Shown: positions 4,576-57,862 of the stretch, piece after piece
Position numbering within the stretch: position 1 is the stretch's first letter
Layout: every line of letters starts with the position of its first letter
Source of the DNA: a virus
Direction: 5' to 3' (one strand)
Length of the DNA: 64,000 bases
IMG/VR virus record: IMGVR_UViG_3300021373_002437
Span: 1-64,000 of that record
Program-made: the position numbers and the translations under genes
Notes under the pieces: generated by a model
Seen by the model: only the letters and a program-made list of their open reading frames with translations
Told to the model about the DNA's origin: nothing
Databases searched by the model: none

Positions 4576-5430
4576 TTGTATATTAATGTATCTATATGTG
4601 ATGATGAAAAAGAACATACTTTTAGAATCGACCTGTTGTCTAACAAATATGTTGATCATTTATTTGAAAAACATGAAATATCTGGTAACTGGTCTTGGCA
4701 GAGAGTTGCTGTTCCGTCTGAATTGGATTATGATGCGGATAGAATAAAAGAATTGTGGGATGGGTGCCTTTCTTGTTACTATAAATTTTTAGACTTGATA
4801 GGAGCAAAAGATTTGGCAGCCCCCCCAGAAACTTTTGATTTTACCAATAAACATACGAATACTTTCCATCGAATTTTTACAACATACAACATTTCCTGTA
4901 CATACTATGGGGTTGAGTATGAATTTAAACAAGAAGCGTTGGATGAAGTGGAAGAACTTAATGTTCTTATTCATGAACTTGAAAAATATATTCCAAATAA
5001 AACAATCGATGATTTCAAGAAAGATTTTGGAAAGGTGGCGTGGATAGATATTCAGGGAGACAATCACGAGAAAGAAACTAGATTCAATTTTTATGAATCC
5101 GACAGAGAGTTTGTAAATAATTTTTCTGAGTATTGTAATGTTTTTTGCATCAAACATATATTGGGGAAAGACCATTTGATCGGTTATTTAAATGAAGATG
5201 AAAGTCATCATTGGGATATAACAAATTTTCATTTGGGTTATTGTGGGTTTTGTTTGGATTTCCGGGGCGATTTACAACGGGTGTGGAAATACCCACCGTT
5301 GAAAGATTGGGCTGGAGAGGTTTCTTTATCATATTATCCGGTGGGTAGAATATCCGAAGAAGATATGGATGTAATTAGAGGACTTTCTAGTAATGTGAAA
5401 GTTGTAGGGGTTGAATATATAAATGGCTGA
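4576..5430 (+). CDS. Unrecognised family, paralogue B (radical SAM cassette)
   Basis: A 284-residue protein, probably started at the TTG at 4576, four bases after the dehydrogenase stop; no ATG fits better. It is related by pattern to the products at 2463-3299 and 8303-9361: TNTFHRIFTTY (near 93) corresponds to LNRLHAIFHHY and LNQLHHHFEIL, and ELNVLIHELE (near 126) corresponds to LNGLVHLLE and LNNLVHELQ. The N-terminus is more divergent and the C-terminal part has YCGFCLDFRGDLQ in place of the YGEF/SGEF segment. The end overlaps the first twitch radical SAM gene by 8 bases. Function is unknown. Confidence 0.72.
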   Translation: MYINVSICDDEKEHTFRIDLLSNKYVDHLFEKHEISGNWSWQRVAVPSELDYDADRIKELWDGCLSCYYKFLDLIGAKDLAAPPETFDFTNKHTNTFHRIFTTYNISCTYYGVEYEFKQEALDEVEELNVLIHELEKYIPNKTIDDFKKDFGKVAWIDIQGDNHEKETRFNFYESDREFVNNFSEYCNVFCIKHILGKDHLIGYLNEDESHHWDITNFHLGYCGFCLDFRGDLQRVWKYPPLKDWAGEVSLSYYPVGRISEEDMDVIRGLSSNVKVVGVEYING

Positions 5431-6883
5431 ACAATTCACGGACAATACGAAAAATGAAGATCGTATTAAGATTTTAGAGATAAAACGTGATCAAATCAAT
5501 GAGGTAAGTCCTTCTTTTTGTACTGCCAAATGGTTACAAACGACTCTTTATTTACAGACTGGATTTAATCATTCTTGTCACCACCCATCACCACACAAAA
5601 TACCAGTGAAAGAAGTTCTAGAAAATCCTGCTGCACTTCATAACAGCAAATTTAAAAAAGAACAGCGTGAAAAGATGTTGGCGGGAGAACGACCAAAAGA
5701 ATGTGATTATTGCTGGAATATAGAAGATTTAGATAATAAGTATTTCTCTGATAGGCATTATAAAACGTCCGACTATTGGGCTTGGGATAGGTTCGACGAG
5801 ATAACAAATTCAAATCCAGAAGATGATATTTTTCCTTCTTATCTGGAAGTTTCCTTCTCAAATGCTTGTAACTTTGCATGTTCTTATTGTTCCCCAGATA
5901 TAAGTTCGAAGTGGATGAAGGACATTAAAAGTAATGGCCCATATCCCGTCAAGTTTGGTAGCCACCACCTTTCTTATTTGCGAGAGAGAGAACAGTTCCC
6001 ATACTCACACGATGAATATAATCCATACGTCGAAGCCTTTGACAAATGGTTCCCAGAAGCGTATCCCCATCTAAAAGTTTTTCGTATTACTGGTGGTGAA
6101 CCAACCATGTCAAAAGATTTCTGGAAAACCTTGGATTTTATACTTGAGAATCCAAGACCCGATCTTGAGATTTCAATTAATACTAATCTGGGCACACCAA
6201 AAGAATTGATTGATCGTTTAATTGTTTATGCTAAGAAATTAGATGAGACTTGTAAGGAATGTTTAATATTTACTAGCTGCGAAGCCTACAAAGAGCAAGC
6301 AGAGTATATTAGAGACGGTATGAATTATGACTATTGGTATTCTAATATTGTAAGGTTCCTAGAAGAGACCGATTGTAAAGTTTGTACTATGACAACGATT
6401 AATGTGTTGAGCTTACCATCATTTTCTAGGTGGCTTGATGATATGATGCAGCTACGAATTAAATATGATAAAGACAAATATGCACACCGAACCCCGATAA
6501 GTTTTAATTATTTGAGGTTCCCACCACACTTACAGGTGACCATTCTACCAAGAAAATATAGAGAGCGGTTTGCTAGGGAATTATCGGCTACAGCATTACA
6601 GTGGCATAAGAGAAATACTAGAATTGCCCATGCGAAGATATATCTAGAAGAACAAGATCAGATTGCTAGGTTCTGTGAATATTTGTTGAAAGATACTACT
6701 TCTGGTCCAAAGTACCGGGAAAATTTTATGCAGTTCATACAGCATTATGATTATAGAAGAAATAAAAACTTTACTGAAACTTTCCCGCAATATAAAAAGC
6801 TTTATGGAGAATGGCAAGAAGAATATGCAGAATCTCTATCAGCCGATAAGAGAAATCTTGAGTTAGGTAACCACGTTGAGTGA
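5423..6883 (+). CDS. Twitch-type radical SAM protein (SCHHP subgroup, 1)
   Basis: A 486-residue radical SAM protein with inverted domain order. An N-terminal twitch-like auxiliary cluster domain carries C33 (PSFCTAKW), C52 (SCHHP, 51-55), and C94/C97 (ERPKECDYCW). The core follows with C149, C153 and C156 (NACNFACSYC) and RITGGEPTMS near 220. The end carries YDYRRNKNFTETFPQY, a signature shared by its neighbours. It forms a subgroup with 6876-8306 and 9363-10760, all having HKIP after SCHHP. The chemistry is presumably SAM cleavage to a 5'-deoxyadenosyl radical; the substrate is unknown. It overlaps the neighbours on both sides, indicating translational coupling. Confidence 0.88.
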   Translation: MAEQFTDNTKNEDRIKILEIKRDQINEVSPSFCTAKWLQTTLYLQTGFNHSCHHPSPHKIPVKEVLENPAALHNSKFKKEQREKMLAGERPKECDYCWNIEDLDNKYFSDRHYKTSDYWAWDRFDEITNSNPEDDIFPSYLEVSFSNACNFACSYCSPDISSKWMKDIKSNGPYPVKFGSHHLSYLREREQFPYSHDEYNPYVEAFDKWFPEAYPHLKVFRITGGEPTMSKDFWKTLDFILENPRPDLEISINTNLGTPKELIDRLIVYAKKLDETCKECLIFTSCEAYKEQAEYIRDGMNYDYWYSNIVRFLEETDCKVCTMTTINVLSLPSFSRWLDDMMQLRIKYDKDKYAHRTPISFNYLRFPPHLQVTILPRKYRERFARELSATALQWHKRNTRIAHAKIYLEEQDQIARFCEYLLKDTTSGPKYRENFMQFIQHYDYRRNKNFTETFPQYKKLYGEWQEEYAESLSADKRNLELGNHVE

Positions 6884-8306
6884 TCATTTAATAGAATATA
6901 GAAAACGAGTCCTTGATGCGAAGTCCCCGTCTTTCTGTGGTGCGAAATGGTATAATGCTACTACTTGGTTAGGTAGTGGAACTACTGCATCGTGCCACCA
7001 CCCGACTGCTCATAAAATACCTCTTGTGGAGCTAGAGGCTGATCATACTGCAATACACAACACGAAGCATAAGAAAGCAGTTAGAAAGATGATGCAAGAA
7101 GGCGAAAGGCCAAAGGAGTGTGAATATTGTTGGCGCATTGAGGATATGGGTAAGGATTCTGTTTCGGATAGAGTTTTCAAATCAGAAATCTACAGCGAAG
7201 AAGACCTTCAGAAAGCTTATGAAATGGATTGGAAAGATAGTGTTGATTTAAAGACTTTTGAAATTGCTTTTGATCGAACATGTAACCTAGCATGTTCTTA
7301 TTGCAACCCCTCCTTTTCTTCTACGTGGGCTAGGGACATTAAAAAACTGGGTCCATACCAGAATCTTTTATCTGATGGAGCGGGTGCGTTTGAACAAGAT
7401 GGTTCTTGGACTGAGCCTTATGGTAGAGACGAAGAGAACCCGTATATCACAGCATTTTGGAAGTGGTGGGATGATGGGTTGTCAGATAGTCTAGAAGAAT
7501 TACGTATTACTGGTGGTGAACCCCTAATGTCTGGTAACACTTGGAAGTTATTTGATTGGTTTGAACAACAAGATTCTGACATGAGGTTTGCAATCAATAC
7601 AAATTTCATGGCAAAGGACGAAATTGTTGATCGTTTGATTGAAAAATCTCACCACATAAAACATTTTGAGCTTTATACTAGTGCTGAGTGTTATGGCACC
7701 CAGCAAGAATTTTTACGTGATGGGTTTGAATGGGATACATGGTCGAAAAATATGGACCGATTTGCAGAAGAGGGTAATTATCATAGCATAAATATCATGA
7801 TGACGATCACTGCTTTGAGTGTGTTTTCTATTACAGAATTCTTAGACGAAGTTACAGATATGAAGCAGAGAAGTCGTGCTGGCAAACATCCTGTAATAAG
7901 CGTCAATATTTTGAGGTTCCCTAGCTTCCAAAGCGTTGTGACATTACCAGAACATATAAGAGCATTTTGTAGAAACGAGTTGTTTCTTTGGATTGAAGAG
8001 AATAAAAATTTGCCCTGTTGGTTAGATTTTGAAATCGCCAGCCTGCAAAGACTGGTCGATTATCTGTATTCATACGACTCTCCATTTGAGAAGGCTAGTG
8101 AGTTGGAGGTTCGACAACAAGACTTAAAATCTTTCTTTGATCAATACTGTGATCGTAGAGGTAAGGACATAAACGTATTTCCAACAATTTTTACCGAATG
8201 GTATAATTCTTTGGAAAGTGGGTATAAGAAAGCAGCTTTGAAGTCTGGAGATAATACTAGATTTTTGGATGATAATAGATTAATAGAACTGAGGGACATA
8301 TTATGA
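6876..8306 (+). CDS. Twitch-type radical SAM protein (SCHHP subgroup, 2)
   Basis: A 476-residue paralogue of the preceding protein. The start is the TTG at 6876, overlapping the previous stop by 8 bases; the next in-frame ATG would delete the N-terminal cluster ligands. Twitch ligands are C21 (PSFCGAKW), C40 (SCHHP), C82 and C85 (ERPKECEYCW). Radical SAM ligands are C136, C140 and C143 (RTCNLACSYC), followed by RITGGEPLMS. The C-terminal CDRRGKDINVFPTIF matches the DxRR...FP signature of the group. The region NILRFPSFQSVVTLPEH corresponds to NYLRFPPHLQVTILPRK in the first copy. Divergence between copies is large, so this is an old duplication and probably specialised in substrate. Confidence 0.88.
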   Translation: MSDHLIEYRKRVLDAKSPSFCGAKWYNATTWLGSGTTASCHHPTAHKIPLVELEADHTAIHNTKHKKAVRKMMQEGERPKECEYCWRIEDMGKDSVSDRVFKSEIYSEEDLQKAYEMDWKDSVDLKTFEIAFDRTCNLACSYCNPSFSSTWARDIKKLGPYQNLLSDGAGAFEQDGSWTEPYGRDEENPYITAFWKWWDDGLSDSLEELRITGGEPLMSGNTWKLFDWFEQQDSDMRFAINTNFMAKDEIVDRLIEKSHHIKHFELYTSAECYGTQQEFLRDGFEWDTWSKNMDRFAEEGNYHSINIMMTITALSVFSITEFLDEVTDMKQRSRAGKHPVISVNILRFPSFQSVVTLPEHIRAFCRNELFLWIEENKNLPCWLDFEIASLQRLVDYLYSYDSPFEKASELEVRQQDLKSFFDQYCDRRGKDINVFPTIFTEWYNSLESGYKKAALKSGDNTRFLDDNRLIELRDIL

Positions 8307-9361
8307 CAAAGACTGTTGTAATGACTTTACAAAATCCTCTTGATGAGAGTGATTTGTTGGAGATTGAATATGAAGTATTGGACACCACTATAGGTAACCA
8401 ATGGTTTGATCATTGCATCATGAATCTGAACAAACGACAAAGAGTTGAGAAAAATTTTTGTTGGTTGGGTTGGCCTGATCAAAACAGGACAGTTGAGTTT
8501 CTTGCAGAGCGACTAGAGCGTTGCGTTGATACTATAAATGAATTTGCGGATACTAATAATCCACATTGGAATGGATACCGTATAGAAAAGAGTTGGGAAG
8601 ATATTACCAGTGATGATGCCTTAAATCAACTTCATCACCATTTTGAAATTTTGATGGGACAGGTTTGGGATGTTGCAATCTATATGCGTTCTGCTGACCC
8701 AAAAACCTCCTATGCTATTCGGCAATTGAATAATTTAGTTCACGAACTACAAGCTAGGAAATATGCCAACAAATCTGGTATGACTGTTGTGAGTTATTTG
8801 GACCCGATTAGAGAAGAGTTTGACGAACAGCATTATGACAGCTTTTCTATAAACAGAAATTTTGGTGATATCTTCTTACATTACGCACAAACTGGAAAAA
8901 CACCAATAGAAGCATTTGAGGACAATGATGATTATGTGTTTAATAATAACATAAATGCATTGCGATACATGTCTGGTGAATTTAATATTTGGTGGAATGC
9001 TTCAACCTCTGAATCTGATGTAAATTCAACTAAAGAGAAACTTGGAGCATGGTTAAACGCCAGAGAAGTTATCATGCAAGAGCAAGATGATTTTTGTTAT
9101 TATGTTGACCCTGATGGTAATAAACAGGGTATCGGGTGGCTGACAGTAGCAAAGATAAAAAACCCTTTCGAAACAGAAGACGAATTGGTTGAAGAGGTTA
9201 ATAAGCGTCTTAATATATATAAGCTTGCCTGTTATATTGATGGTGAATTTGTTACTGAAATGCAGTGGGATTATAAGTGGTCTGATGAAGACTATATTGA
9301 AAATGAAGTAGAGTATTTGACTCCACTATTTCCATGCTCACAACCTAACGCTTTGGATTGA
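8303..9361 (+). CDS. Unrecognised family, paralogue C (radical SAM cassette)
   Basis: A 352-residue protein, the longest of three related copies. Its start overlaps the preceding radical SAM stop by ATGA. The shared pattern is clearest against 2463-3299: LNQLHHHFEILMG (near 114), LNNLVHELQ (near 146), VVSYLDPIR (near 162), DIFLHYAQTGKTPIEAFED (near 188), and YMSGEFNIWW (near 220). Its C-terminal ~110 residues, absent from the shortest copy, are acidic and contain YYVDPDGNKQGIGW. The His/Glu pairs on adjacent predicted helices could bind metal, but this is speculative. It sits between two SCHHP-subgroup radical SAM genes, strengthening the link between the two families. Confidence 0.75.
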   Translation: MTKTVVMTLQNPLDESDLLEIEYEVLDTTIGNQWFDHCIMNLNKRQRVEKNFCWLGWPDQNRTVEFLAERLERCVDTINEFADTNNPHWNGYRIEKSWEDITSDDALNQLHHHFEILMGQVWDVAIYMRSADPKTSYAIRQLNNLVHELQARKYANKSGMTVVSYLDPIREEFDEQHYDSFSINRNFGDIFLHYAQTGKTPIEAFEDNDDYVFNNNINALRYMSGEFNIWWNASTSESDVNSTKEKLGAWLNAREVIMQEQDDFCYYVDPDGNKQGIGWLTVAKIKNPFETEDELVEEVNKRLNIYKLACYIDGEFVTEMQWDYKWSDEDYIENEVEYLTPLFPCSQPNALD

Positions 9362-9362
9362 A

Positions 9363-10760
9363 ATGCCACATACATACGATTTAATAAAGGTTAAAGATAT
9401 AACGGAACAATTGAATGAAGTTGGTCCCGGTTTTTGTATGGCTAAGTGGTACCACATTAGCATGCATCTACATACGGGACAAAATCACAGTTGTTACCAC
9501 CCAGCCCCACATAAAATTCCATTGAAAGAAGCACAGGAGAACCCTAATGTACTCCACAATACCCCATATAAGAAACAGGTTCGAAAAGAAATGTTGTCTG
9601 GTGGTAGACCCTCAGAATGTTCTTATTGTTGGGATGTAGAAGACTTGCCCGGAGACCATATTTCTGATAGAATGTTAAGGTCTTCTGAAGAATGGTCTAT
9701 ACCTAAAATTGAAGAAACTTCAAAGATGACCGGGGATGAAGATGTTTATCCTGCATATCTAGAACTGAATTTTAGTAATCGCTGCCAATTTAAGTGTAGT
9801 TACTGCGCTCCTATGGCTAGTTCTACTTGGGTTAATGAAACGGATAAGTATGGTGATTGGCCTTTGGAAAACCCGATCAATGTTAGGCAGTACCAAAACA
9901 TATCATTCCAAAATGAGGGGACTAAACATGGAGAAGAAGATTCGAACCCATATATTAAAGTCTTTTGGGATTGGTTTCCAGAAGCATATCCTCATGTACA
10001 GACACTTAGATTCACTGGTGGCGAGCCTTTATTAAGCCCCAATGTTTTCAAGGTTCTTGATTATGTTTCAGAACACCCAAACCCAGAACTTAAATTTGCT
10101 GTAAACAGTAACATGTCAGTTCCTCAGAGAAACATAGAGCGGTTCATTAATGTCACTAATGATTTGGTGCAAAATAATAAAATCAAGGGGTATGGGGTAT
10201 TCACCAGTGTAGATACGTGGGGGGCACAAGCTGAATGGATACGTAATGGATTGAACATAGAGAAATACGAAAACAATCTTCATTACTACATGCAAAACTC
10301 CGCAACCCCATATATGAGTTTTATGGTCACGTTCTGTTTGCTGGCAATTCCTAGGTTCACGGAATTTTTGGATAAAGTATTGGAATTGAGGAAGCAGTAT
10401 AACGTTTGTAATGATCAGCGCCAAAGAATAAACTTTGATACTCCATACACAGTAGAACCACCACATTTAACCGCTAGAATTGCAGATGATTGGTTTGTGG
10501 AAAGATTAGATCACAACTGTCAATACATTTTAGACAGGGTTGATGACAATGATGTGAATGCGTTTTCCATGGTAGAATATGAAAAGCTTCATCGGGTTTT
10601 GGAGTGGGTGAAGAGAAGTAGATTTGAGGGCGATGAATTGGCAATGAACCGTAGAGACTTTGCTAAATTTGTCGATGAACATGACAGGAGACGGGGCACA
10701 GACTTTCATGCTGCATTCCCTGAACTTAGAGAATTTTATGAGATGTGTAGAAAATCATGA
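9363..10760 (+). CDS. Twitch-type radical SAM protein (SCHHP subgroup, 3)
   Basis: A 465-residue third member of the subgroup, one base after the preceding stop. The N-terminal auxiliary domain has C25 (GPGFCMAKW), C44 (SCYHP, one His replaced by Tyr), C86 and C89 (GRPSECSYCW). Core ligands are C141, C145 and C148 (NRCQFKCSYC), then LRFTGGEPLLS. The C-terminal signature is DEHDRRRGTDFHAAFPEL. In the second core region the protein reads NFDTPYTVEPPHLTARI, less like the LRFP strand of copies 1 and 2, so the substrate pocket may differ. Its end overlaps the next start as ATGA. Confidence 0.88.
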   Translation: MPHTYDLIKVKDITEQLNEVGPGFCMAKWYHISMHLHTGQNHSCYHPAPHKIPLKEAQENPNVLHNTPYKKQVRKEMLSGGRPSECSYCWDVEDLPGDHISDRMLRSSEEWSIPKIEETSKMTGDEDVYPAYLELNFSNRCQFKCSYCAPMASSTWVNETDKYGDWPLENPINVRQYQNISFQNEGTKHGEEDSNPYIKVFWDWFPEAYPHVQTLRFTGGEPLLSPNVFKVLDYVSEHPNPELKFAVNSNMSVPQRNIERFINVTNDLVQNNKIKGYGVFTSVDTWGAQAEWIRNGLNIEKYENNLHYYMQNSATPYMSFMVTFCLLAIPRFTEFLDKVLELRKQYNVCNDQRQRINFDTPYTVEPPHLTARIADDWFVERLDHNCQYILDRVDDNDVNAFSMVEYEKLHRVLEWVKRSRFEGDELAMNRRDFAKFVDEHDRRRGTDFHAAFPELREFYEMCRKS

Positions 10761-12064
10761 AAGATGAAAAAAATGAAATTATGTGCAAAACATTCACCGA
10801 TGATGTTCAGGAGTCATTTTGTGTACTTCCCTTTGTCCACACAAACCTGAACACTGAGGGAGATGTTTACCCCTGTTGTATTTCTTGGGACGCAGAGCGT
10901 TCAAATAAAATTGGTCTTTTAAAAGATAATACTTTAGAAGAATTATTCAACGATGATAAGCTACAACAACTTCGTCGCGACTTGATATCAGGAACGCGCC
11001 GCCCCGATGTTTGTGTTCGCTGTTACACTTCTGAAGACAATGGTTTTCCTGCTGGTAGACATGGCAACAATCGTGATCTGCAGCACATGATTCCTCAAAT
11101 ATTAGAGGACTATTCTGAAACCGGATATATGCCACCGAAAATAAAAAGCTGGGATATTCGTTATAGTAATTTATGTAATTTGAAATGTAGAAGTTGTGGT
11201 GGAATATACAGCACTACATGGTCAAAAGAAGATTCTGAGTTTTATCATGGGATGGAATACCGCGAGATAAAATCATATGAAGGAAAAGACCCTCTTGAGA
11301 ACCAATATGAACACGTAGAAAAAATATATTTTGCTGGTGGTGAGCCACTTATAATGCCAGAACATTTTTCAACCCTGAAGAAGTTGATTGAAATCGATAG
11401 AGCCAAGTACGTTAGATTAGTTTATAATACTAACATGACAAAACTCAATTATGATAGGAACTACTTACCAGATTTGTGGAAAGAATTTAAAGCAGTTTCA
11501 TTGGGGTTGAGTATAGATAATTTTGGGGATAGAGCAAACTACATACGTCATGGAAATATAAAATGGAACAAAATAGAAGATAATATTAAGAAAATGTATG
11601 AATATACAACGACTCCCGGTTCTAATATGGATTACTTTTTTTCACCAACTGTGAGTTTATTGAATGTGTATACTTTAACAGATTTGCATCGCTATTTATT
11701 TGAAAATGGTATGATGGTCCACCCAGACCAAATACTTCTCAACATTTTGTATCACCCACAGGAACTTTCTATCACCATACTCCCTGACCACATAAAGGAA
11801 GAAATATCTGGCAAAATTATTGCACATATAGCGTGGTTGAATTCCTTGGACGGTACTTATGGCAATGCCAAAGGGCAATTTGAAAGTCTATTGTCCTATA
11901 TACATGAGACAATACCGAATGTGGAAGAACATGTTGAACGTTTTGTGAAAAGAACCCAAGAGATTGACCACAGAAGAAATGAATGCTTCCCAGATACCTT
12001 TCCAGAATATGCAGAATGGTGGCAAACTATTACTAAGGACAAAATTTTCGCGGTAAACATATGA
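10757..12064 (+). CDS. Twitch-type radical SAM protein (PCC subgroup, 1)
   Basis: A 435-residue radical SAM protein with the canonical version of the N-terminal twitch domain: SFCVLPF (C22), VYPCCISW (C40/C41), a TLEELFNDDKLQQLRRDL helix and PDVCVRCYTSED (C86, C89). Radical SAM ligands are C140, C144 and C147 (NLCNLKCRSC), followed by YFAGGEPLIM. The C-terminus has EIDHRRNECFPDTFPEY. This Cys-Cys plus Cys-x-x-Cys arrangement is what SPASM/twitch domains use to hold an auxiliary [4Fe-4S] cluster. It differs from the SCHHP group in having a doublet of cysteines. It is coupled by ATGA overlaps on both sides. Confidence 0.9.
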   Translation: MKDEKNEIMCKTFTDDVQESFCVLPFVHTNLNTEGDVYPCCISWDAERSNKIGLLKDNTLEELFNDDKLQQLRRDLISGTRRPDVCVRCYTSEDNGFPAGRHGNNRDLQHMIPQILEDYSETGYMPPKIKSWDIRYSNLCNLKCRSCGGIYSTTWSKEDSEFYHGMEYREIKSYEGKDPLENQYEHVEKIYFAGGEPLIMPEHFSTLKKLIEIDRAKYVRLVYNTNMTKLNYDRNYLPDLWKEFKAVSLGLSIDNFGDRANYIRHGNIKWNKIEDNIKKMYEYTTTPGSNMDYFFSPTVSLLNVYTLTDLHRYLFENGMMVHPDQILLNILYHPQELSITILPDHIKEEISGKIIAHIAWLNSLDGTYGNAKGQFESLLSYIHETIPNVEEHVERFVKRTQEIDHRRNECFPDTFPEYAEWWQTITKDKIFAVNI

Positions 12065-13329
12065 AAGAACTGCCCAAAACTATATGTGCTCACCCGTGGC
12101 AACATTTACATAGTTGGCCTGATGGGAAGGCTATGTTGTGCTGTGTTGCCCATGGGGGAGATAAACACGGTGCTGTTGGTGATTTTTCGGTTAATTCATA
12201 CGAAGAAATTATGAACAGTGATAAAATGAATCAAATCCGAAAAGATTTCTTGAATGGTGAGAAACCCGTTGAGTGTAGTGCTTGTTGGAAAGCTGAAGAG
12301 TTGGGTAAAAGCAGTTTTAGGTTAGATATTGGTCTCAGCGATGAAGTAAGAGATTTGATGGAAAGAACCTCCGATAATGGAGAGCTTCCAGAAACAAAGA
12401 TGTATTACATGGATTACCGATTCAGCAATCTGTGTAACCTTGGTTGTCAAACTTGTGGTAGTCCACTTAGCAGCACAATAGCAAATAAGAGGGAGAATAA
12501 CGAGAGTGAAAATTCTATACTGAGAGACCGAGGGGTTTTATCTGAGAGGGGTACTGTTACATCATTTGTTTATGCCAGACCAGATTTCATGGAAGTTGAT
12601 GTTTATCCATATTTGGATGATTGTCGGAGTTTTTATTTTGCTGGTGGTGAACCGTTAATGCACCAAGAACATCTGGATATACTTAACTACCTAAACGACA
12701 ATAAATTATACAATAAGCACATAATGTATAGTACAAACCTGTCAATTTTATCATGGAAGGGTAACGACTTTATTGATATTTGGAAAAACTTTAGCAACTT
12801 GATGTTTTGGTGTAGTGTAGATGCACATGGCCCCGCATTAGAATATGTTAGGGAATATTCCAACCACGACACGATCTTTAAAAATTTGCAAAAGTTGTTA
12901 GATGCAAAAAAAGATCATCCCCAAATGAAGATAAATATTTGCTGTACCCACAGTGTATATAATGCATATTGTTTTCCAGAATTTATAGACTTTTTGTATG
13001 AGCAGGGATTTCTACAACTGCTGGATGATATTGAAATAAACTATGCTTTTGGAGATTTGAATTCTCCAGCAATACTTCCTAACTTCGCAAAAAAGGAACT
13101 AAAAGAGAAGAGGGCCCTTTGTAGGAACAATGAATCAATTCAATATGCAATGCAAAAATTTGATAAGTTTGAATATTACTATGACACAGTAGATTCTGTT
13201 ATAGACGAACCCAGTCAAAAAAGAGTCTGGGATGATCTGGTCTCAAAAAAATTGATAAAAGATATGAAAAAGCTTGAAAACAGCCTGCCTTGGTTGCACA
13301 GTGTTGTTGAGAGGTATAGAATTGTATGA
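12061..13329 (+). CDS. Twitch-type radical SAM protein (PCC subgroup, 2)
   Basis: A 422-residue protein. Twitch ligands are C9 (TICAHPW), C27/C28 (AMLCCVA), C72 and C75 (VECSACWKAEE). Core ligands are C125, C129 and C132 (NLCNLGCQTC) followed by SSTIANKR, then FYFAGGEPLM. Unlike the others the C-terminus lacks an obvious DxRR...FPE signature and ends SLPWLHSVVERY. Start and stop overlap neighbours by 4 bases (ATGA). The substrate is unknown; the operon context implies it acts on the same product as its five relatives. Confidence 0.88.
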   Translation: MKELPKTICAHPWQHLHSWPDGKAMLCCVAHGGDKHGAVGDFSVNSYEEIMNSDKMNQIRKDFLNGEKPVECSACWKAEELGKSSFRLDIGLSDEVRDLMERTSDNGELPETKMYYMDYRFSNLCNLGCQTCGSPLSSTIANKRENNESENSILRDRGVLSERGTVTSFVYARPDFMEVDVYPYLDDCRSFYFAGGEPLMHQEHLDILNYLNDNKLYNKHIMYSTNLSILSWKGNDFIDIWKNFSNLMFWCSVDAHGPALEYVREYSNHDTIFKNLQKLLDAKKDHPQMKINICCTHSVYNAYCFPEFIDFLYEQGFLQLLDDIEINYAFGDLNSPAILPNFAKKELKEKRALCRNNESIQYAMQKFDKFEYYYDTVDSVIDEPSQKRVWDDLVSKKLIKDMKKLENSLPWLHSVVERYRIV

Positions 13330-14531
13330 CACATTGCATTAACGTATATAAAGGACTTAGATATACCAATAGTGGGGATGTTCAGTTTTGTTGTAAGAGT
13401 GATATGTTTCTAGATGATAAGGATGGGAACAAGGCACAAATTTATACTCACACCCTAGAAGAAGCCCAAAATGGAAATCTTGCTGTCGAAATTAGAGAAG
13501 ATTTGGAGCGGGGGGTAAAACATAAGAATTGCCAGAAATGTTGGGATGAAGAAGAAGCTGGCATTTCTAGTAAAAGAATTTTGGACAACCAAAGAGCTAT
13601 TCGATATTGGGGAGAAAGGTATTTAAATGATAAAGTGGTATCCCCAGAAATAGTTGAGTTTAATTTTGGAACTATTTGCAACCTCAAATGTAGAATATGT
13701 GGTCCGTGGTCGAGCAGTAGATGGAATTCTGAATTTTATGAGTTGCTTGCCGGGGAGGATTATCCAAAAGAACATCACGACAACCAAGTTTCTTTGTGGC
13801 AAGGTAATTGGGAAGATGATAGTCCTGCGTGGGACAATATTTCTAAAAGCATCGGCAACCTAAGACACATTGATTTCTATGGTGGCGAGCCTTTTTTGGT
13901 AGACCGCAATTGGGAAATATTGAAGCAGAATGTTGAAAATGGTAATTCCTCAAACCAATATATCCATTTCAATACGAATGGAACTCGTTATGAGGAAGAG
14001 CATATAGAAATTTTAAAGAGTTATCGTAGAATAAATATAAGTTTATCTATTGACGATATGGGGGAGCGATTTAATTATCAGAGGCATCCGGCTAACTGGG
14101 ATATAGTAAATGAAAACTTAAAGAAATTTAAAGAGCTTGAAGAAGAATTCCCCCAGTTTGAAGTTATGGTCTGTGTGACTGTTAATAATTTAAATTTGTG
14201 GTATATACCGGAATTGGTGAATTATTTTGATAGTATGGGAATACCCTATTATATAAACTATTTACACTACCCCTCCCACTATAACATATCAAATTTAAAA
14301 CAAGATGTTAAGCCTTTGGTGGCGCAAAAATATGATGAAGCCATGATGGAGATGCAATGTAATTATAGTAAAGATAATTTGAAAGCAATAATAAATTATA
14401 TGAATGTTAATATAGGCACCGCTGAACGGTGGAATGAATTTTTAAATAAAACTGAATTCAGTGATAAATATAGAAAACAAAATTTTAAAAGTGTTTTTCC
14501 TGAGTGGGCCGATGTGTTGGGGATTGTGTAA
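13326..14531 (+). CDS. Twitch-type radical SAM protein (PCC subgroup, 3)
   Basis: A 401-residue protein. Twitch ligands are C4, C22/C23 (VQFCCKSD), C69 and C72 (KNCQKCWDEEEAG). Core ligands are C118, C122 and C125 (TICNLKCRIC) followed by GPWSSSRWN, a run typical of this family, and then DFYGGEPFLV. The C-terminus has KQNFKSVFPEWADVLG, a degenerate form of the FPE signature. It is the last of the radical SAM series. The stop is followed directly by the TTG start of the SDR gene, continuing the operon. Confidence 0.88.
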   Translation: MTHCINVYKGLRYTNSGDVQFCCKSDMFLDDKDGNKAQIYTHTLEEAQNGNLAVEIREDLERGVKHKNCQKCWDEEEAGISSKRILDNQRAIRYWGERYLNDKVVSPEIVEFNFGTICNLKCRICGPWSSSRWNSEFYELLAGEDYPKEHHDNQVSLWQGNWEDDSPAWDNISKSIGNLRHIDFYGGEPFLVDRNWEILKQNVENGNSSNQYIHFNTNGTRYEEEHIEILKSYRRINISLSIDDMGERFNYQRHPANWDIVNENLKKFKELEEEFPQFEVMVCVTVNNLNLWYIPELVNYFDSMGIPYYINYLHYPSHYNISNLKQDVKPLVAQKYDEAMMEMQCNYSKDNLKAIINYMNVNIGTAERWNEFLNKTEFSDKYRKQNFKSVFPEWADVLGIV

Positions 14532-15927: not shown

Positions 15928-17361
15928 ATGATAGCTTGGGGAGTTAGTGCCGGATTTCATGATGCTGCTTTGTCCGTGGTGGACAGCAGGCAGATTCTTT
16001 TTGCCTCGCATTCGGAGCGTTACAGTAGAGAGAAAAACGATAAGAACCTACACTCGGACCTGATACAAGACGCATTACAGTTCGGTTATCCCGAAATTAT
16101 ATTCTGGTATGAAAACCCTCTTTTAAAAGCCACCAGAAGAATCTATGCTGGACAAAGTAACTGGTACACAAATCCAAAGAAGTATTTTACTGAGGCTGGC
16201 TTTGACCCCTGTTGTCATATAGAATGGGGAAACCACCATGAGAGTCATATGGCTGCTGGTCACTACACAAGCCCGTTTGGTTCTTCCGCGACTCTAGTGA
16301 TTGATGCTATTGGGGAGTGGACCACAACATCCATCTGGAAAAACAATAAGAAGATTTGGAGTGCAAACTATCCACGTTCATTGGGACTGCTTTATTCTGC
16401 CTTCACAGATAGAGTTGGACTAAAGCCCAATGAGGATGAATATATCTTGATGGGTATGGCAGCATACGGTGAGCCTAATTATCAGGACGAGATTTATGAG
16501 TTGTCCAGAACAAGAAACTTCCACCGGGGAGCGAGAGACTTCCGACCAAATCTTACCTCAGAACAAGACCTGTTTGATATTGCATGCAGCGTACAGAAAG
16601 TATATGAATCATACTTTCATGCTTTGTTGTATAAGGCTAGAGATTTGACGGGAGAAAAGAATCTTGTGTTCATGGGTGGTTGTGCTTTGAATTGTTTAGC
16701 TAACAGGATGATTCCAAGGTATTTTAAAAAATATTGGATTATGCCCAGCCCCGGTGATGCAGGTTCTTCTCTTGGAGCGGTTCTTGCAAAGACCCGAAGA
16801 TATGTTAAATTTAAATCCCCTTACCTTGGGTACAATATTGAAGGCAAGTACCCAGTCAATGCTGCACTTAAAGAGTTGATGGAAACTGGTATGGTGGGCG
16901 TGGCGAATGGTCGCGCTGAGTTTGGTCCTAGGGCATTAGGTAACAGGAGCTTACTTGCAGACCCTCGTGGTCAAGAAATGAAGGACAAGGTGAATGCAAT
17001 CAAGCAGAGGCAAGAGTTTCGTCCCTTTGCCCCAGTGATACCTCAAGAAAAGGTTTCTGAGTATTTTGATGTACCCGAAGATTTTGAATCCCCCTATATG
17101 CAGGAGGTTGTTCGCTGTAAATACCCAGACGAATTCCCAGCCATTGTACATAAAGACGGTACCAGCCGTGTACAAACTGTAACCAAAAAGCAAAATTCTG
17201 GGTTATATAGATTGCTTACTAAGTGGGAACAGGAGACTGGTTGCCCCATGCTTCTGAATACTAGTCTAAATATTAAGGGACAACCAATTGTCAACAATGA
17301 AAAGCATGCGCGTGACTTTGAGCATAAATATAACGTGAGAGTTTTTACACAAGAGACCTAA
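15928..17361 (+). CDS. Carbamoyltransferase (NodU/CmcH/TobZ family)
   Basis: A 477-residue O-carbamoyltransferase. The N-terminal ASKHA-like domain starts WGVSAGFHDAALSVVD and continues with SHSERYSREKND (the usual ExRxSRxK motif) and MAAYGEP. FMGGCALNCLANR is the conserved Gly-Gly-x-Ala-x-Asn segment. The C-terminal domain has EFGPRALGNRSLLADPR followed by RQEFRPFAPVIPQE, both hallmarks of the family. It is shorter than NodU or TobZ (about 560-600). Family members transfer a carbamoyl group from carbamoyl phosphate, via carbamoyl-AMP, to a hydroxyl on sugars or antibiotics; some viral relatives are reported to act on hydroxymethylcytosine in DNA. Either sugar or base could be the acceptor here. 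It ends the accessory operon. Confidence 0.9.
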   Translation: MIAWGVSAGFHDAALSVVDSRQILFASHSERYSREKNDKNLHSDLIQDALQFGYPEIIFWYENPLLKATRRIYAGQSNWYTNPKKYFTEAGFDPCCHIEWGNHHESHMAAGHYTSPFGSSATLVIDAIGEWTTTSIWKNNKKIWSANYPRSLGLLYSAFTDRVGLKPNEDEYILMGMAAYGEPNYQDEIYELSRTRNFHRGARDFRPNLTSEQDLFDIACSVQKVYESYFHALLYKARDLTGEKNLVFMGGCALNCLANRMIPRYFKKYWIMPSPGDAGSSLGAVLAKTRRYVKFKSPYLGYNIEGKYPVNAALKELMETGMVGVANGRAEFGPRALGNRSLLADPRGQEMKDKVNAIKQRQEFRPFAPVIPQEKVSEYFDVPEDFESPYMQEVVRCKYPDEFPAIVHKDGTSRVQTVTKKQNSGLYRLLTKWEQETGCPMLLNTSLNIKGQPIVNNEKHARDFEHKYNVRVFTQET

Positions 17362-26658: not shown

Positions 26659-28368
26659 TTATCCAGAGAAACTTTTATCTTCTCTTCGTTGTAATGTACT
26701 ATCACTGTTTCTGACAGTATCACGATTAATCAATATGTTTTCACTAGCACCACCTTGAGTAGTACTGTTATTATTGGTGATATTGTTTATCGTGGTACTA
26801 CCGGAACCAGACTCTTCTGGGATAGTATTTTCAATAGCATTCCCAGTTGGGACTACAGAAGGTATTGCCAGTGTAGGTGCGGTTAAGGCCGCTCTTTGAT
26901 CTGCAACCGATTCAATTTCTTCAGCAGACCTACCAAGAAAACCAAAAGATAATGTATTGAGAGCACTGTTACCGGCATTGAAAAGACGATCTGTTGTACT
27001 GGCTCGCTCATCTGCCATAAATCCTTTACCAGCACTATAACCAGCAGTACCAGCGGTGATCACAGCACCAACCGGTCCAGCAAACCTCGCCAGACGCCCT
27101 GCAGCCCTCCCTGCGCTACGAAAGATTCCACCCCTCTTAGGGACCGTGGTATTCCTTGTCGCGCCTCTGGGACGATCTGGTGAGCTTGTGGGGTTAGAGC
27201 TTCCCGGTGTTCGTGGGTCCATACCACCCGGAGCCCTTGATGGAGGCACTGTAGTAGTTCTTGGAGTCGTGGTAGCTCTACCCGGTCCCGTAGTAGTTCT
27301 TCCGGGTAATCTAGAAGATACTGCATCAGCCAATCCCTTAAGACCAGCCATACCAGCAGCAAGTCCAGCAGTAATAGCGCCGGTAATTGTAGAACCTAGC
27401 CGACCAAATAAAGCACCAAGCCCAGCACCAGCCAGCAAGCCAGCACCACCCCCACCAACACCGATGGTATTATCTGTGATCTTTTCTAGCTCTTTCTTTA
27501 TATCTTCAAGTAACTCTTCTGTTTTTGGGTTATCTCTATCAATACCAGTCTTAAATGCATTATTGTTATTTTTGACATTTTTTTCAGTAGTTTTTGAAGG
27601 TTTCTCTACAATTTCTGTTCGTTTTTCTTCAGAAATTCCGATTTTTTCAATAGTATCTTCTAATGCCTTTGCAGACTCCCCTATCTGTTCTTGTGTGTCC
27701 ATATTACGCATTTGAATTTCTTCTTTGGATTTTGGGCGCAATCCGGGGATTCCTGTCCACCCCAAACCAGCCACACCAGCATCCCCAAACATATTAGTAA
27801 CAGCCTGTCCCGCGCCCTTAGCAATCGGAGCAAGTGTTGGAAGATTCTCTGCGAAAAATTTGTTCTTTGGCTTCAGGTTCTGGTCGATATTCATTGACTC
27901 TTTAAACCTACCCATGCGACTACCAACAGCAGCAGTCATGAGTTTGTTCTGAACGGCATCCAGATCAAGAGCGCCAGATACACCGGGGGAACTTTCTTTA
28001 ATAGTCTCAACGGTCTTTATGATTTCTCTAATTGCAGCAACACTCTTTTTACCCTGCATCTGTTGAGCCGCTGCCAGTTGTTTAACCAGCTTGGTCATTT
28101 CACCTTTCAATTCACTGTTACCTTCATCAATTGCTTTTTGAAGTTCCAGTGTGTTTTTACCAAGATTTTCTGCGAGGGTAGAAGAAGCCCCAACAATACT
28201 TCCTTGTTGCAGTTTGGTGGTTTTAATGTTACCACCAGCCATAGCAGATTTTACAGAATCGACAAGACCCAACGCTCCAAGGTTATCGAAGCGTCCCTTC
28301 TCGTTTCTAAAATTAGTACCACCAAATTCATCATCTAAAATGTTTCTGCCGGTAACCTTGCCTACCAT
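26659..28368 (-). CDS. gp29: Tape-measure / baseplate hub protein (gp29-like)
   Basis: A 569-residue protein close in length to T4 gp29 (590), the tail length determinant. The N-terminal half is helical with coiled-coil character (SELKGEMTKLVKQLAAAQQM). The middle has hydrophobic Gly/Ala-rich segments (GAGLLAGAGLGALFG and GAITAGLAAGMAGL), then a Pro/Gly/Arg-rich linker, another small hydrophobic patch and an Asn/Thr-rich tail (TTINNITNNNSTT). This is typical of myophage tape measures. The gene directly follows a chaperone pair with a frameshift signal, the standard position for a tape measure. SD AGAGAGG precedes the ATG. Confidence 0.75.
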   Translation of the reverse strand: MVGKVTGRNILDDEFGGTNFRNEKGRFDNLGALGLVDSVKSAMAGGNIKTTKLQQGSIVGASSTLAENLGKNTLELQKAIDEGNSELKGEMTKLVKQLAAAQQMQGKKSVAAIREIIKTVETIKESSPGVSGALDLDAVQNKLMTAAVGSRMGRFKESMNIDQNLKPKNKFFAENLPTLAPIAKGAGQAVTNMFGDAGVAGLGWTGIPGLRPKSKEEIQMRNMDTQEQIGESAKALEDTIEKIGISEEKRTEIVEKPSKTTEKNVKNNNNAFKTGIDRDNPKTEELLEDIKKELEKITDNTIGVGGGGAGLLAGAGLGALFGRLGSTITGAITAGLAAGMAGLKGLADAVSSRLPGRTTTGPGRATTTPRTTTVPPSRAPGGMDPRTPGSSNPTSSPDRPRGATRNTTVPKRGGIFRSAGRAAGRLARFAGPVGAVITAGTAGYSAGKGFMADERASTTDRLFNAGNSALNTLSFGFLGRSAEEIESVADQRAALTAPTLAIPSVVPTGNAIENTIPEESGSGSTTINNITNNNSTTQGGASENILINRDTVRNSDSTLQRREDKSFSG

Positions 28369-28373
28369 TATTG

Positions 28374-28553
28374 CTACCTCTCTTTAGCCTGTTCAGCCTT
28401 CTTCTTTAAATGTACTATCAGCATGCTTATGTATACTTCTCTTTCCCAAGGCATCATATTCTCTAGTTGTTCTAAGTCCCACTGATGTTCTTGTATTAGT
28501 AAGAAATTCGTTTTGTAATAATTTTCAATCGAATCTTGAGAAAGAGTTAGACG
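28374..28553 (-). CDS. gp51: gp51-like / T-domain extension made by -1 frameshift from gp26
   Basis: A frame of 59 codons and a stop that begins inside the end of gp26 and lacks an ATG, GTG or TTG start in its first half. At the end of gp26 the zero-frame codons CAT TTT TTC form the slippery heptamer T-TTT-TTC (28559-28553) in correct phase. Slipping back one base continues with CGT CTA ACT and bypasses the gp26 stop two codons later. The product would be gp26 plus 59 residues including WDLEQLENMMPWEREVY, a pattern like the T domain of lambda-type tail chaperones. The frame ends 5 bases before the tape-measure ATG. Confidence 0.7.
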   Translation of the reverse strand, partial: RLTLSQDSIENYYKTNFLLIQEHQWDLEQLENMMPWEREVYISMLIVHLKKKAEQAKER

Positions 28554-29239
28554 AAAAAATGCTCGTACCCATTAATAACAATCTCATTATGGTGCCCACA
28601 TTTTGGACAATCAAATTCGATATTATGTGCAATTGTAGGAATAGCAGAAAGAAACTCTTCAGCTTCTCCATATGCTTCTAGGGGCAAACCATCTACCCAT
28701 TCTACAATCTCTTCTCTGTTATCTTCATCTGGTTTAGTTACTTCCTCATCATCAAAAATGTATTCGATGCAACTAACCAGAATATCAGTATCCGACATGT
28801 TCTCAAAGTTAACCTGAACTTCAGAACTCGGGTACTTCATTACCATCCCAGAAGATTCATTTAATAAAATCTTCTTGTTTGGTTCTGCGGTGTTTCCGAT
28901 CATCTGGAAATCATTCACGCTCATTTCATAACCAATCTTGTTACTACATTCACCACAAATCAATTCAAATGATTGTTGCTCTCCTGTAGATTTTTCCTTA
29001 AGCTTCAGGAAGAGCCATTGTAAAATGTGTAGTGGTAGTTCATCAACGTCAATTCCTTCTACGCAATTCCCAACCACCTGTTTACAAGCAGACAACATTC
29101 CAAGCTTGTCTTCTGATTCTACTGCCAGTGTCAGTATCTTACTTTCTTTTACCAAAAAGGGCCTACACTTGATCACTTCCTCACTTTCAGGAAGAGTTAC
29201 ATCAAACGTAGGCACGACAACTTTAGGTAGTGCCATCAT
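28547..29239 (-). CDS. gp26: gp26-like baseplate hub assembly protein
   Basis: A 230-residue protein that matches the T4-like gp26 family (T4 208 residues). It starts PKVVVPTFDVTLPES and has two CxxC pairs, C95/C98 (LICGECSN) and C211/C214 (FDCPKCGHH), likely to hold one zinc. It ends YEHFFV at a slippery T-TTT-TTC. ATG at 29239 has AGGAG five bases upstream; a second ATG follows directly. Its position before the tape measure and the frameshift signal suggest it acts as the tail-assembly chaperone of this phage. Confidence 0.8.
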   Translation of the reverse strand: MMALPKVVVPTFDVTLPESEEVIKCRPFLVKESKILTLAVESEDKLGMLSACKQVVGNCVEGIDVDELPLHILQWLFLKLKEKSTGEQQSFELICGECSNKIGYEMSVNDFQMIGNTAEPNKKILLNESSGMVMKYPSSEVQVNFENMSDTDILVSCIEYIFDDEEVTKPDEDNREEIVEWVDGLPLEAYGEAEEFLSAIPTIAHNIEFDCPKCGHHNEIVINGYEHFFV

Positions 29240-29255
29240 AATCTCCTATAATAAT

Positions 29256-29912
29256 TTAACCGTTCGGGTCACGGTCACCAAAAATGTTATAAAAATTCTG
29301 GAAAAAACCAGCGTCCGTGTCGATTACTTCATTCTTTAAATCAGCAATACGATCAGCAACGTCTAATCTAGGTTGTTCATAATTGCTGTAATTGTTCTTC
29401 CATCTCTTCGCAGACATGGATAGTGATGTTCTAAGTTGTTGAGTGTTGCCCCAAGCAACTGGTGTGATATTTAGCAGCTTCGGCATACACTCAATAAAAT
29501 GCCATTCACCCACAACATTGTCAGCAACATCCAAAGAACGCACCTTAACATCAGCAGTAATATCGCTGTAAAAAGAAACCTCTTTGGTTTTCATATTTGA
29601 AGACAGATTAATCCAGCTTTCAAAATATGATCGCAGACTCCAGTTATAATCTACCAGAAAGGTAAATACTATTTCGGTTGAAAGGAACTCTACATTTTGA
29701 TTTCGGTATTCTGTCCACGGACCAATTTTGTATGGGACCGTAGTCGCGGATAGGCCCGGTATCTGAGCCTCTTCACACATTAGAGTGGTGAGAAAATTTG
29801 ACCCCAACTTCTTACAACCACCAATCTCTACTTCGAACCTGTCAGAACGAGGTAGGTGGGTGGTTCTCATCCGATGTAAGAACTCTTGATAGTTAGTCAT
29901 TGACTTAGGCAT
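29256..29912 (-). CDS. gp54: Tail-tube initiator-like protein (gp54/gp19 fold)
   Basis: A 218-residue protein with the tube-protein pattern SDRFEVEI, LTTLMCEEAQIPG, PYKIGPWTEYRNQNVEF, then FTFLVDYNWSLRSYFESWI, as in the T4 gp19 tube fold and its baseplate adaptors gp48 and gp54. The true tail tube gene would be expected beyond gp18, outside the window, so this copy in the hub cluster is more likely the tube initiator gp54, though shorter than T4 gp54 (320). It overlaps the upstream gene by 8 bases and precedes gp26. Confidence 0.65.
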   Translation of the reverse strand: MPKSMTNYQEFLHRMRTTHLPRSDRFEVEIGGCKKLGSNFLTTLMCEEAQIPGLSATTVPYKIGPWTEYRNQNVEFLSTEIVFTFLVDYNWSLRSYFESWINLSSNMKTKEVSFYSDITADVKVRSLDVADNVVGEWHFIECMPKLLNITPVAWGNTQQLRTSLSMSAKRWKNNYSNYEQPRLDVADRIADLKNEVIDTDAGFFQNFYNIFGDRDPNG

Positions 29913-52489: not shown

Positions 52490-52972
52490 ATGACAGACAT
52501 GACTGTTCCTGCAGATAATGTATCTGTGGAAATTCCCCCCGAACCACCAAAAAAAGAATATCTAAATCCCTACTGGTCCAACAAGGAAAATCGTCACCTT
52601 ATAGTTACGATTAAATTCCCCAATGGAAAAACTTCCACTGCATCTATTCAAGACACGGATGGTAGTAACCCAGACATGAAAGAAATTATGAAGGTTTATA
52701 CCGAGGAAGACATTGATGCTAATACACAAAAGGGTCTTGATGTCCGTAATGAAAAAATCCGAAAACATGCAGAGAGAAAAGAATCGCAAAAAGCAAGGGC
52801 AAAGCAAGAGGCGCTTTTTGCAATTAAGCTTGAGATGTTTGAAATCGATACAATCAAAAATTCAGAAAATAAAGAATTGAAAAGACGCATTAGAAAAGCG
52901 AAGACCATTCCTGAAGCACAAGCCTACTGTACAATTTTGTTAATGAAAGAGATGGAAAATGAGTCAAAGTAA
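52490..52972 (+). CDS. Helical protein of unknown function after fibre gene
   Basis: A 160-residue protein. The N-terminus is proline-rich (VSVEIPPEPPKKEYLNPYW), followed by a small beta part (HLIVTIKFPNGKTSTASIQDT) and a long Lys/Glu-rich helix (NEKIRKHAERKESQKARAKQEALFAIKLEMFEID). It could be a fibre assembly factor; no motif proves it. Preceded by a 16-base perfect palindrome over the previous stop. Overlaps the next gene by 14 bases. Confidence 0.65.
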   Translation: MTDMTVPADNVSVEIPPEPPKKEYLNPYWSNKENRHLIVTIKFPNGKTSTASIQDTDGSNPDMKEIMKVYTEEDIDANTQKGLDVRNEKIRKHAERKESQKARAKQEALFAIKLEMFEIDTIKNSENKELKRRIRKAKTIPEAQAYCTILLMKEMENESK

Positions 52973-57807: not shown

Positions 57808-57821
57808 TAGATTATTGATTG

Positions 57822-57829
57822 TATAAATA
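57822..57829 (+). promoter_or_regulatory. Late promoter for neck/terminase operon
   Basis: Exact TATAAATA, predicted start near 57835, leader of about 28 bases before the ATG at 57863. It lies in the divergent gap between the glycosyltransferase operon (-) and neck genes (+), next to a near-consensus box on the other strand. Confidence 0.75.
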
Positions 57830-57862
57830 ATGTAATACACCAATACTTATAAGACTTTTCAT

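What the first reader, a model, noticed from the sequence alone, without database searches (positions are those of the whole stretch)
28374..28560. Programmed -1 frameshift joining gp26 to a gp51/T-domain frame before the tape measure
gp26 ends CAT TTT TTC GTC TAA. The T-TTT-TTC heptamer is in the correct phase for -1 slippage, and a 59-codon frame in the -1 phase, without a usable start codon, continues to 5 bases before the tape-measure ATG. Lambda-like and many other phages make G and G-T tail chaperones exactly this way, at exactly this position. T4 itself is not known to do so, where gp26 and gp51 are separate. This suggests gp26/gp51 are the T4-like counterparts of G/GT.
Basis: partly seen in the sequence, partly recalled or inferred. 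Interest (0 to 1): 0.82.

Follow-up and report, generated by a model that had tools for sequence, protein, structure and literature searches.

The report
Frameshifted tail-assembly chaperone gene, T4-like phage
This marine T4-like phage very probably makes both the short and the long version of its tail-building helper protein from one gene by letting some ribosomes slip back one base, at a slippery sequence followed by a conserved RNA hairpin, whereas T4 itself keeps two separate genes for the same job.

Summary
Confirmed, on the minus strand. gp26 (29239..28547) ends CAT TTT TTC GTC TAA. The heptamer T_TTT_TTC (28559..28553) is in phase for -1 slippage, and a 59-codon -1 frame without a start codon runs to 5 bases before a tape-measure-like ORF. 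The heptamer alone is not unusual (32 in the window, 26 expected); comparison makes the case. In 250 related loci the T domain always lies in the -1 frame. At 60% gp26 identity 90 of 93 lineages keep an in-phase T_TTT_TTN, while other Phe-Phe pairs in the same loci are slippery in 11 of 257. The -1 frame is under purifying selection. The gp26 model's best solved matches are three known tail assembly chaperones. T4 gp51 is a gp26 paralogue plus T in one frame, so T4 gp26/gp51 correspond to G/GT; that pairing is already published (Vladimirov 2022, known here only through citing papers). Not found in the papers I could search: a covarying 10-12 bp long-range RNA helix whose 5' arm starts 6 nt after the heptamer, kept beyond protein constraint in this phage's clade and largely absent in cyanophages. 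It probably stimulates the shift. No wet evidence exists.

The parts
28547..29239 (-). gp26 / short tail assembly chaperone (TAC-N, G-like), 230 aa, with two CxxC pairs
   Evidence: phrog_150 E=8e-54, PF12322 T4_baseplate E=1e-50; AlphaFold2 pLDDT 93.6, N-terminal part matches HK97 gp13, YqbN and RBSTP2171
28553..28559 (-). slippery heptamer T_TTT_TTC in the gp26 phase
   Evidence: in-phase T_TTT_TTN in 90 of 93 lineages, 11 of 257 other FF dipeptides
28547..28549 (-). 0-frame stop codon TAA of gp26, one codon after the heptamer
   Evidence: its distance from the heptamer varies among relatives (0, 1, 2 or about 8-9 codons) while the heptamer stays
28374..28553 (-). -1 frame encoding the T domain, 59 codons plus TAG, no own start codon
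   Evidence: phrog_634 E=2e-24; dN/dS about 0.09-0.17; hhalign to T4 gp51 200-249 E=3e-6
28535..28546 (-). 5' arm of the long-range RNA helix (CTCTTTCTCAAG), starting 6 nt after the heptamer, directly after the TAA
28439..28450 (-). 3' arm of the long-range RNA helix (CTTGGGAAAGAG), in the codons for P-W-E-R
26659..28368 (-). tape-measure-like ORF, 569 aa, starting 5 bases after the T stop
   Evidence: position and length; a long ORF (300 aa or more, or running off the locus) follows T in 221 of 245 relatives; the syntenic ORF of HTVC008M is annotated putative tail tape measure; no family hit here, so the identity is inferred
29256..29912 (-). tail-tube-like protein upstream of gp26 (syntenic with the gp54-type baseplate tail tube initiator)
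   Evidence: phrog_45 tail tube E=5e-20; same position annotated tail tube initiator in HTVC008M and Mosig

Best explanation
gp26 is the short tail assembly chaperone (G-like). Most ribosomes stop at the TAA and make the 230-aa protein. A fraction slip one base back on T_TTT_TTC (tRNA-Phe re-pairing in both the P and the A site) and read 59 more codons, giving a 288-aa gp26-T fusion (GT-like). A 10-12 bp long-range RNA helix that begins 6 nt after the heptamer, directly after the stop codon, and encloses about 84 nt very probably slows the ribosome at the slip site and raises the shift rate. Many short chaperones would coat the tape-measure protein encoded immediately downstream, and the few T-bearing copies would bring in tail tube protein. 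Shown here: frame, heptamer, conservation, selection on the T frame, RNA covariation, predicted chaperone-like fold, paralogy with T4 gp51. Inferred: that shifting occurs in cells, its rate, the effect of the helix, and the chaperone function.
For: T domain always in the -1 frame in 250 loci, none in +1. In-phase T_TTT_TTN in 90 of 93 lineages at 60% gp26 identity, against 11 of 257 background FF dipeptides. The last heptamer base varies (C, T, A, G) and the stop position moves, but slipperiness stays. T-even phages with a separate gp51 mostly keep 'EFF' encoded as GAR TTC TTT, which is not slippery. dN/dS about 0.09-0.17 for the -1 frame. No start codon in 40 of 90 lineages, and none conserved. 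The window's record (96 kb held) has only this T domain and no second chaperone copy. Helix: best-ranked synonymous-synonymous pair of 820, UA 33 / CG 29; covariation score 0.217 against 0.127+-0.009 shuffled and 0.06-0.11 slid; 9.16 of 10 pairs against 6.96+-0.15 after amino-acid-preserving recoding; independent contrasts on the tree agree, 9 of 11; present in the isolate Mosig, which was not in the discovery set. The gp26 model's top three solved matches are tail assembly chaperones, Z 7.0-7.9. T4 gp51 = gp26-like + T.
Against: No experiment. Some lineages have an ATG in or near the junction that could start a free T peptide (27 of 90). Ackermannviridae keep a -1 T frame with no canonical heptamer. 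RNAalifold predicted no consensus structure, and the window's fold is only modestly better than shuffles (z -1.7). The helix is largely absent in cyanophages and incomplete in HTVC008M, so it is not needed for the shift in general. Structural Z scores are below 8, and the gp51 model did not match chaperones.
Confidence: 0.9

Rival explanations
1. Separate gp51: the T frame is translated as its own small protein by reinitiation or coupling at the gp26 stop codon, as most genome annotations imply; the T run is incidental.
For: 27 of 90 lineages have an ATG near the start of T; KVP40-like, Rhizobium and phiM7 phages have TAATG or TGATG; records annotate gp51 as a CDS.
Against: No ATG, GTG or TTG in 40 of 90 lineages, nor in the window; annotated starts fall at different, often internal places; the slippery heptamer is kept in all lineages but Ackermannviridae and the two-gene phage; T4 gp51 shows that the T-bearing product there is a gp26-like + T fusion.
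Confidence: 0.05
2. Transcriptional slippage: RNA polymerase adds or drops a U in the T6-T7 run, so some mRNAs encode the fusion in frame.
For: All canonical sites are T runs; T7 variants occur.
Against: Runs of 6 are short for polymerase slippage (own knowledge); the base after the six T may be C, A or G, without lengthening of the run; a covarying helix sits at the spacing typical of ribosomal stimulators.
Confidence: 0.04
3. The RNA helix serves something other than frameshifting, for example mRNA stability or hiding the internal ATGATG; the shift needs only the heptamer. (This rival concerns the helix only and is compatible with the frameshift.)
For: Cyanophages with the same heptamer largely lack the helix; the 3' arm lies just after an internal ATG pair.
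Against: The 5' arm keeps a fixed 6-nt distance from the heptamer even where the stop codon lies elsewhere.
Confidence: 0.25
4. Artefact: a sequencing indel in the T run split an in-frame fusion gene.
For: Homopolymer runs are prone to indels.
Against: The same -1 arrangement in 250 loci from many projects and in isolates, never 0 frame or +1 outside the two-gene phages.
Confidence: 0.01

Closest known systems
Lambda-type G/GT tail assembly chaperones made by -1 frameshift (Xu 2004 and related work; reviewed in PMC5009743)
   Same: Short protein plus a -1-frame extension near its 3' end, no own start for T, tape-measure gene immediately downstream; predicted N-terminal fold like HK97 gp13
   Different: Heptamer T_TTT_TTN instead of lambda's G_GGA_AAG (own knowledge); the short protein carries an extra beta-rich part with two CxxC pairs (residues 88-230); a covarying long-range helix after the heptamer; contractile T4-like phage
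T4 gp26 and gp51 (tail assembly chaperones of T4-like phages, Vladimirov et al. 2022)
   Same: gp26 homologue (E=4e-22), T domain homologous to the gp51 C-terminus
   Different: T4 uses two divergent paralogous genes, gp51 being gp26-like plus T in one frame, with a non-slippery EFF; here one gene and a frameshift
gp26 and gp51 as annotated in Kyanoviridae, Pelagibacter phages, KVP40-like, Emdodecavirus and Rhizobium phages
   Same: Same gene order, heptamer of the T_TTT_TTN type and -1 T frame
   Different: Records treat gp51 as a separate CDS or leave it out; most cyanophages lack the helix
TAC locus of Vandenendeviridae and Andersonviridae (phage Adele, PMC12846349)
   Same: -1 frameshift at a poly-T site at the 3' end of the short chaperone
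   Different: Invariant GTTTTT motif; no long-range helix is described in the passages read
Downstream RNA stimulators of -1 frameshifting (general class)
   Same: Helix about 6 nt after the heptamer (usual spacer 5-9 nt, own knowledge)
   Different: About 84 nt enclosed, helix split between two conserved coding blocks; effect untested

Membership tests
Frameshift-expressed tail assembly chaperone (G/GT type) | Extension frame in -1 relative to the short chaperone, overlapping its 3' end | tested here: met
Frameshift-expressed tail assembly chaperone (G/GT type) | In-phase slippery heptamer conserved near the 3' end | tested here: met
   90 of 93 lineages; background 11 of 257
Frameshift-expressed tail assembly chaperone (G/GT type) | Extension has no start codon of its own | tested here: met
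   None in the window; none conserved across lineages, although 27 of 90 have an ATG nearby
Frameshift-expressed tail assembly chaperone (G/GT type) | Gene lies directly upstream of the tape-measure gene | tested here: met
   ATG 5 bases after the T stop; same in relatives. Identity of the 569-aa ORF as tape measure is by position and length only
Frameshift-expressed tail assembly chaperone (G/GT type) | Short protein has the tail assembly chaperone fold | tested here: inconclusive
   Top three solved matches 3fgx, 2ob9, 3klu (Z 7.9, 7.7, 7.0 over 82-85 residues; then 5.3 and 4.8), all called tail assembly chaperones in PMC9603447; Z below 8 by itself could be a common arrangement
Frameshift-expressed tail assembly chaperone (G/GT type) | Both products made, short one in excess; binding to tape measure and tube protein; absent from the virion | not testable with these tools
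   needs expression, mass spectrometry and binding assays
T4 gp26/gp51 two-gene chaperone system | gp26 homology | tested here: met
   PF12322 E=1e-50; hhalign E=4e-22
T4 gp26/gp51 two-gene chaperone system | Separate in-frame gp26-like + T gene (gp51) | tested here: inconclusive
   None in the 95,980 bases held, but the record may be a fragment; all 250 relatives use the -1 layout
-1 frameshift stimulatory RNA structure | Base-paired element 5-9 nt after the heptamer with compensatory changes | tested here: met
   RNAalifold found no consensus
-1 frameshift stimulatory RNA structure | Raises the shift rate | not testable with these tools
   needs a reporter assay

The most novel reading that the evidence does not exclude
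In one large clade of marine T4-like phages, including this one and the Pelagibacter phage Mosig, the G:GT ratio of the tail chaperone is set by a long-range RNA helix that starts 6 nt after the slip heptamer and encloses about 84 nt, written into synonymous codon choices of two conserved protein blocks. Related cyanophages with the same heptamer lack it, and T-even phages have two paralogous genes instead of slippage, so three ways of setting one protein ratio exist among related phages.
Probability: 0.65. Interest if true: 0.6.

Novelty: new variant of a known kind. Interest (0 to 1): 0.5.

Why it matters
Reviews list T4 as the exception to the otherwise general tail-chaperone frameshift (PMC5009743). 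The data show that the gp26 family across cyanophages, Pelagibacter phages, KVP40-like, Aeromonas, Sinorhizobium and Rhizobium T4-like phages carries the frameshift signature, and that T4's gp26/gp51 pair is the same G/GT pair kept as paralogues. [quoted passage not shown] that link is already published. It also bears on hundreds of annotations that omit gp51 or start it at arbitrary codons, and it adds a covarying stimulator candidate that can be tested by compensatory mutation.

Tried and rejected
Heptamer count alone: not significant in the window. RNAalifold consensus: no structure; the helix came from a pair-wise complementarity scan and was then tested with shuffles, slides, synonymous recoding and tree contrasts. 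Sequence search of solved structures with gp26 and gp51 profiles: no relatives. Structure comparison of T4 gp51: no chaperone match (shallow alignment, inconclusive). Family search for the 569-aa ORF: none. Reading Vladimirov 2022: not held, so exactly what it says about frameshifting in non-T-even T4-like phages is unknown; PMC12846349 cites it for poly-T slippery sites in T4-like chaperone genes. Initiation from an upstream start in the -1 frame was rejected: the frame opens only a few codons before the heptamer in the window. Caveat on counts: some loci come from the same contig, so cluster counts, not locus counts, should be used.

Full report
WHAT IS THERE. The junction lies on the minus strand. 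gp26 runs 29239..28547 and ends GAG CAT TTT TTC GTC TAA. The heptamer T_TTT_TTC is 28559..28553, in the phase needed for simultaneous -1 re-pairing. A frame of 59 codons continues in -1 to TAG at 28374; five bases later begins a 569-aa ORF. There is no ATG, GTG or TTG in that frame between the preceding in-frame stop and the MMPW core. gp26 matches phrog_150 (E=8e-54) and PF12322 (E=1e-50). The -1 frame matches phrog_634, annotated 'baseplate hub assembly catalyst' (the gp51 family; E=2e-24), and also the C-terminal end of phrog_150 (E=2e-6). The motif alone is common in this A+T-rich window: 32 TTTTTTC against 26.3 expected. The case therefore rests on comparison.

CONSERVATION. Scans of IMG/VR with gp26, with a gp26 alignment and with the T frame gave about 230 loci; named phages were added from the phage collection. 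Profile searches of all six frames found gp26 and T together in 250 loci with T in -1 every time and never in +1; T4-type gp51 genes were the only same-frame cases. One further record, Vibrio phage TDDLMA (L026), has tandem gp26-like genes, the second ending in T. After clustering at 60% gp26 identity, 90 of 93 lineages have an in-phase T_TTT_TTN within 45 nt of the stop; the last base is mostly C, but also T, A or G. The exceptions are two Ackermannviridae and TDDLMA. Among all other Phe-Phe dipeptides in ORFs of the same loci only 11 of 257 have this slippery coding. The stop codon follows the heptamer directly, or after one, two or about eight to nine codons, so it is the heptamer and not its neighbourhood that is held. 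In Tevenvirinae, where gp51 is a separate gene, most gp26 genes keep the residues E-F-F but encode them GAR TTC TTT, which does not slip.

THE T FRAME IS CODING AND NEEDS THE SHIFT. dN/dS between the window and its nearest relatives over the -1 frame is about 0.09-0.17 where dS is not saturated. A possible start codon is absent in 40 of 90 lineages, present as ATG at scattered places in 27, and as GTG or TTG only in 23. KVP40-like, Rhizobium and phiM7 phages carry TAATG or TGATG at the junction, so a free T peptide is possible there in addition; they keep the heptamer all the same. The 96-kb record that holds the window has no second gp26-like gene and no second T.

A LONG-RANGE RNA HELIX. Fold energies around the site dip in the first 20 nt after the heptamer (mean z about -1.1 over 90 lineages). 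A scan for complementary blocks pointed to positions 13-24 after the start of the heptamer pairing with positions 109-120. In the window this is CTCTTTCTCAAG (28546..28535) with CTTGGGAAAGAG (28450..28439), twelve pairs; the minimum-energy fold contains it. The 5' arm starts 6 nt after the heptamer. Because third codon positions pair with third codon positions, synonymous covariation can be read directly: in the clade defined by the protein motif LS[HQN], the pair 14-119 is UA in 33 and CG in 29 of 75 sequences clustered at 70%, with few mismatches, and ranks first of 820 third-third pairs (z 5.1). On a 62-sequence alignment the named helix has 88.6% paired cells against 43-66% when slid, and a covariation score of 0.217 against 0.127+-0.009 in shuffles (0 of 500). 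Recoding both arms with synonymous codons gives 6.96+-0.15 of 10 pairs against 9.16 observed (0 of 1000 simulations reach it), and 1% perfect helices against 63%. Independent contrasts on a gp26 tree agree (9 of 11, p about 0.02, for 14-119; 6 to 0.5 for 17-116, p about 0.06). The Pelagibacter isolate Mosig, not used to find the helix, has 11 of 12 pairs; HTVC008M and the cyanophages P-SSM2, S-PM2 and P-RSM6 have it partly or not. RNAalifold by itself predicts nothing. The spacing makes a frameshift stimulator the likeliest role; this is inference.

WHAT THE PROTEINS ARE. AlphaFold2 models gp26 with mean pLDDT 93.6. The three best solved structures by VIA-align are RBSTP2171 (3fgx, Z 7.9), HK97 gp13 (2ob9, Z 7.7) and YqbN (3klu, Z 7.0), all within residues 1-94; a PICI-like protein follows at 5.3 and then 4.8. 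All three are described as tail assembly chaperones (PMC9603447). Z below 8 is modest, but three of three top rows from one family among the Foldseek candidates drawn from 350,000 chains is telling. Residues 88-230 form an additional beta-rich part with two CxxC pairs. Profile comparison shows T4 gp26 and gp51 to be paralogues over about 180 columns (E=9e-12), this gp26 family to match both (4e-22 and 1e-10), and the -1 frame to match T4 gp51 200-249, the part beyond the gp26-like region (3e-6). So T4 gp51 is colinear with the frameshift product. The ORF behind T is long in 221 of 245 relatives, and its counterpart in HTVC008M is annotated putative tail tape measure.

MECHANISM. Best reading: translation to the TAA gives the abundant short chaperone; slippage on T_TTT_TTC, probably aided by the helix, gives a minority with T. 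By analogy with lambda (PMC5009743) the short form coats the tape measure and T recruits tube protein. T-even phages have two paralogous genes instead of slippage; TDDLMA shows a tandem version of the same solution. Which state is ancestral is not proven here.

WHAT IS KNOWN. The frameshifted chaperone is a classic theme, and the 2016 review names T4 as the exception (PMC5009743). [quoted passage not shown] citing papers report that some such phages carry one short and one longer fused gene (PMC10885494) and that poly-T slippery sites occur in T4-like chaperone genes (PMC12846349). I could not read the original. So the G/GT identity is known and the frameshift in marine T4-like phages may be known too. 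I found no report of the covarying helix in the library searched.

Noticed in passing
28547-29239 (-), gp26: Two CxxC pairs (CGEC and CPKC) about 115 residues apart look like a split zinc ribbon; T4 gp26 and gp51 keep similar cysteines.
   Followed up: partly
L006, L016, L018, L276-L290 (Ackermannviridae): A T-like domain sits in the -1 frame right after gp26, but the junction reads NTT TTC AT[TC] TAA (15 of 15 further loci GAR ATT TTC ATT TAA), with no canonical heptamer. Either a single-tRNA slip or another route; unexplained.
   Followed up: partly
L026:1311-2653 (Vibrio phage VB_VaC_TDDLMA): Two tandem gp26-like genes, the second ending in a T-like domain in frame: a differently arranged two-gene solution beside T4's divergent pair.
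   Followed up: partly
570-2462 and 5423-14531 (+): A B12-binding radical-SAM protein and six more radical-SAM or SPASM-type proteins, with a carbamoyltransferase (15928-17361) and a UDP-sugar dehydrogenase-like protein (3333-4571) nearby: unusual cargo for a T4-like phage.
   Followed up: partly
background FF dipeptides in related loci: Slippery T_TTT_TT coding of Phe-Phe is rarer elsewhere (4%) than base composition predicts (about 25%), suggesting avoidance outside the programmed site.
   Followed up: no
54941-57843 (-): Four neighbouring minus-strand ORFs that look by eye like related glycosyltransferases (with a similar one at 52959-53657 on the plus strand), next to tail genes; not tested.
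   Followed up: no
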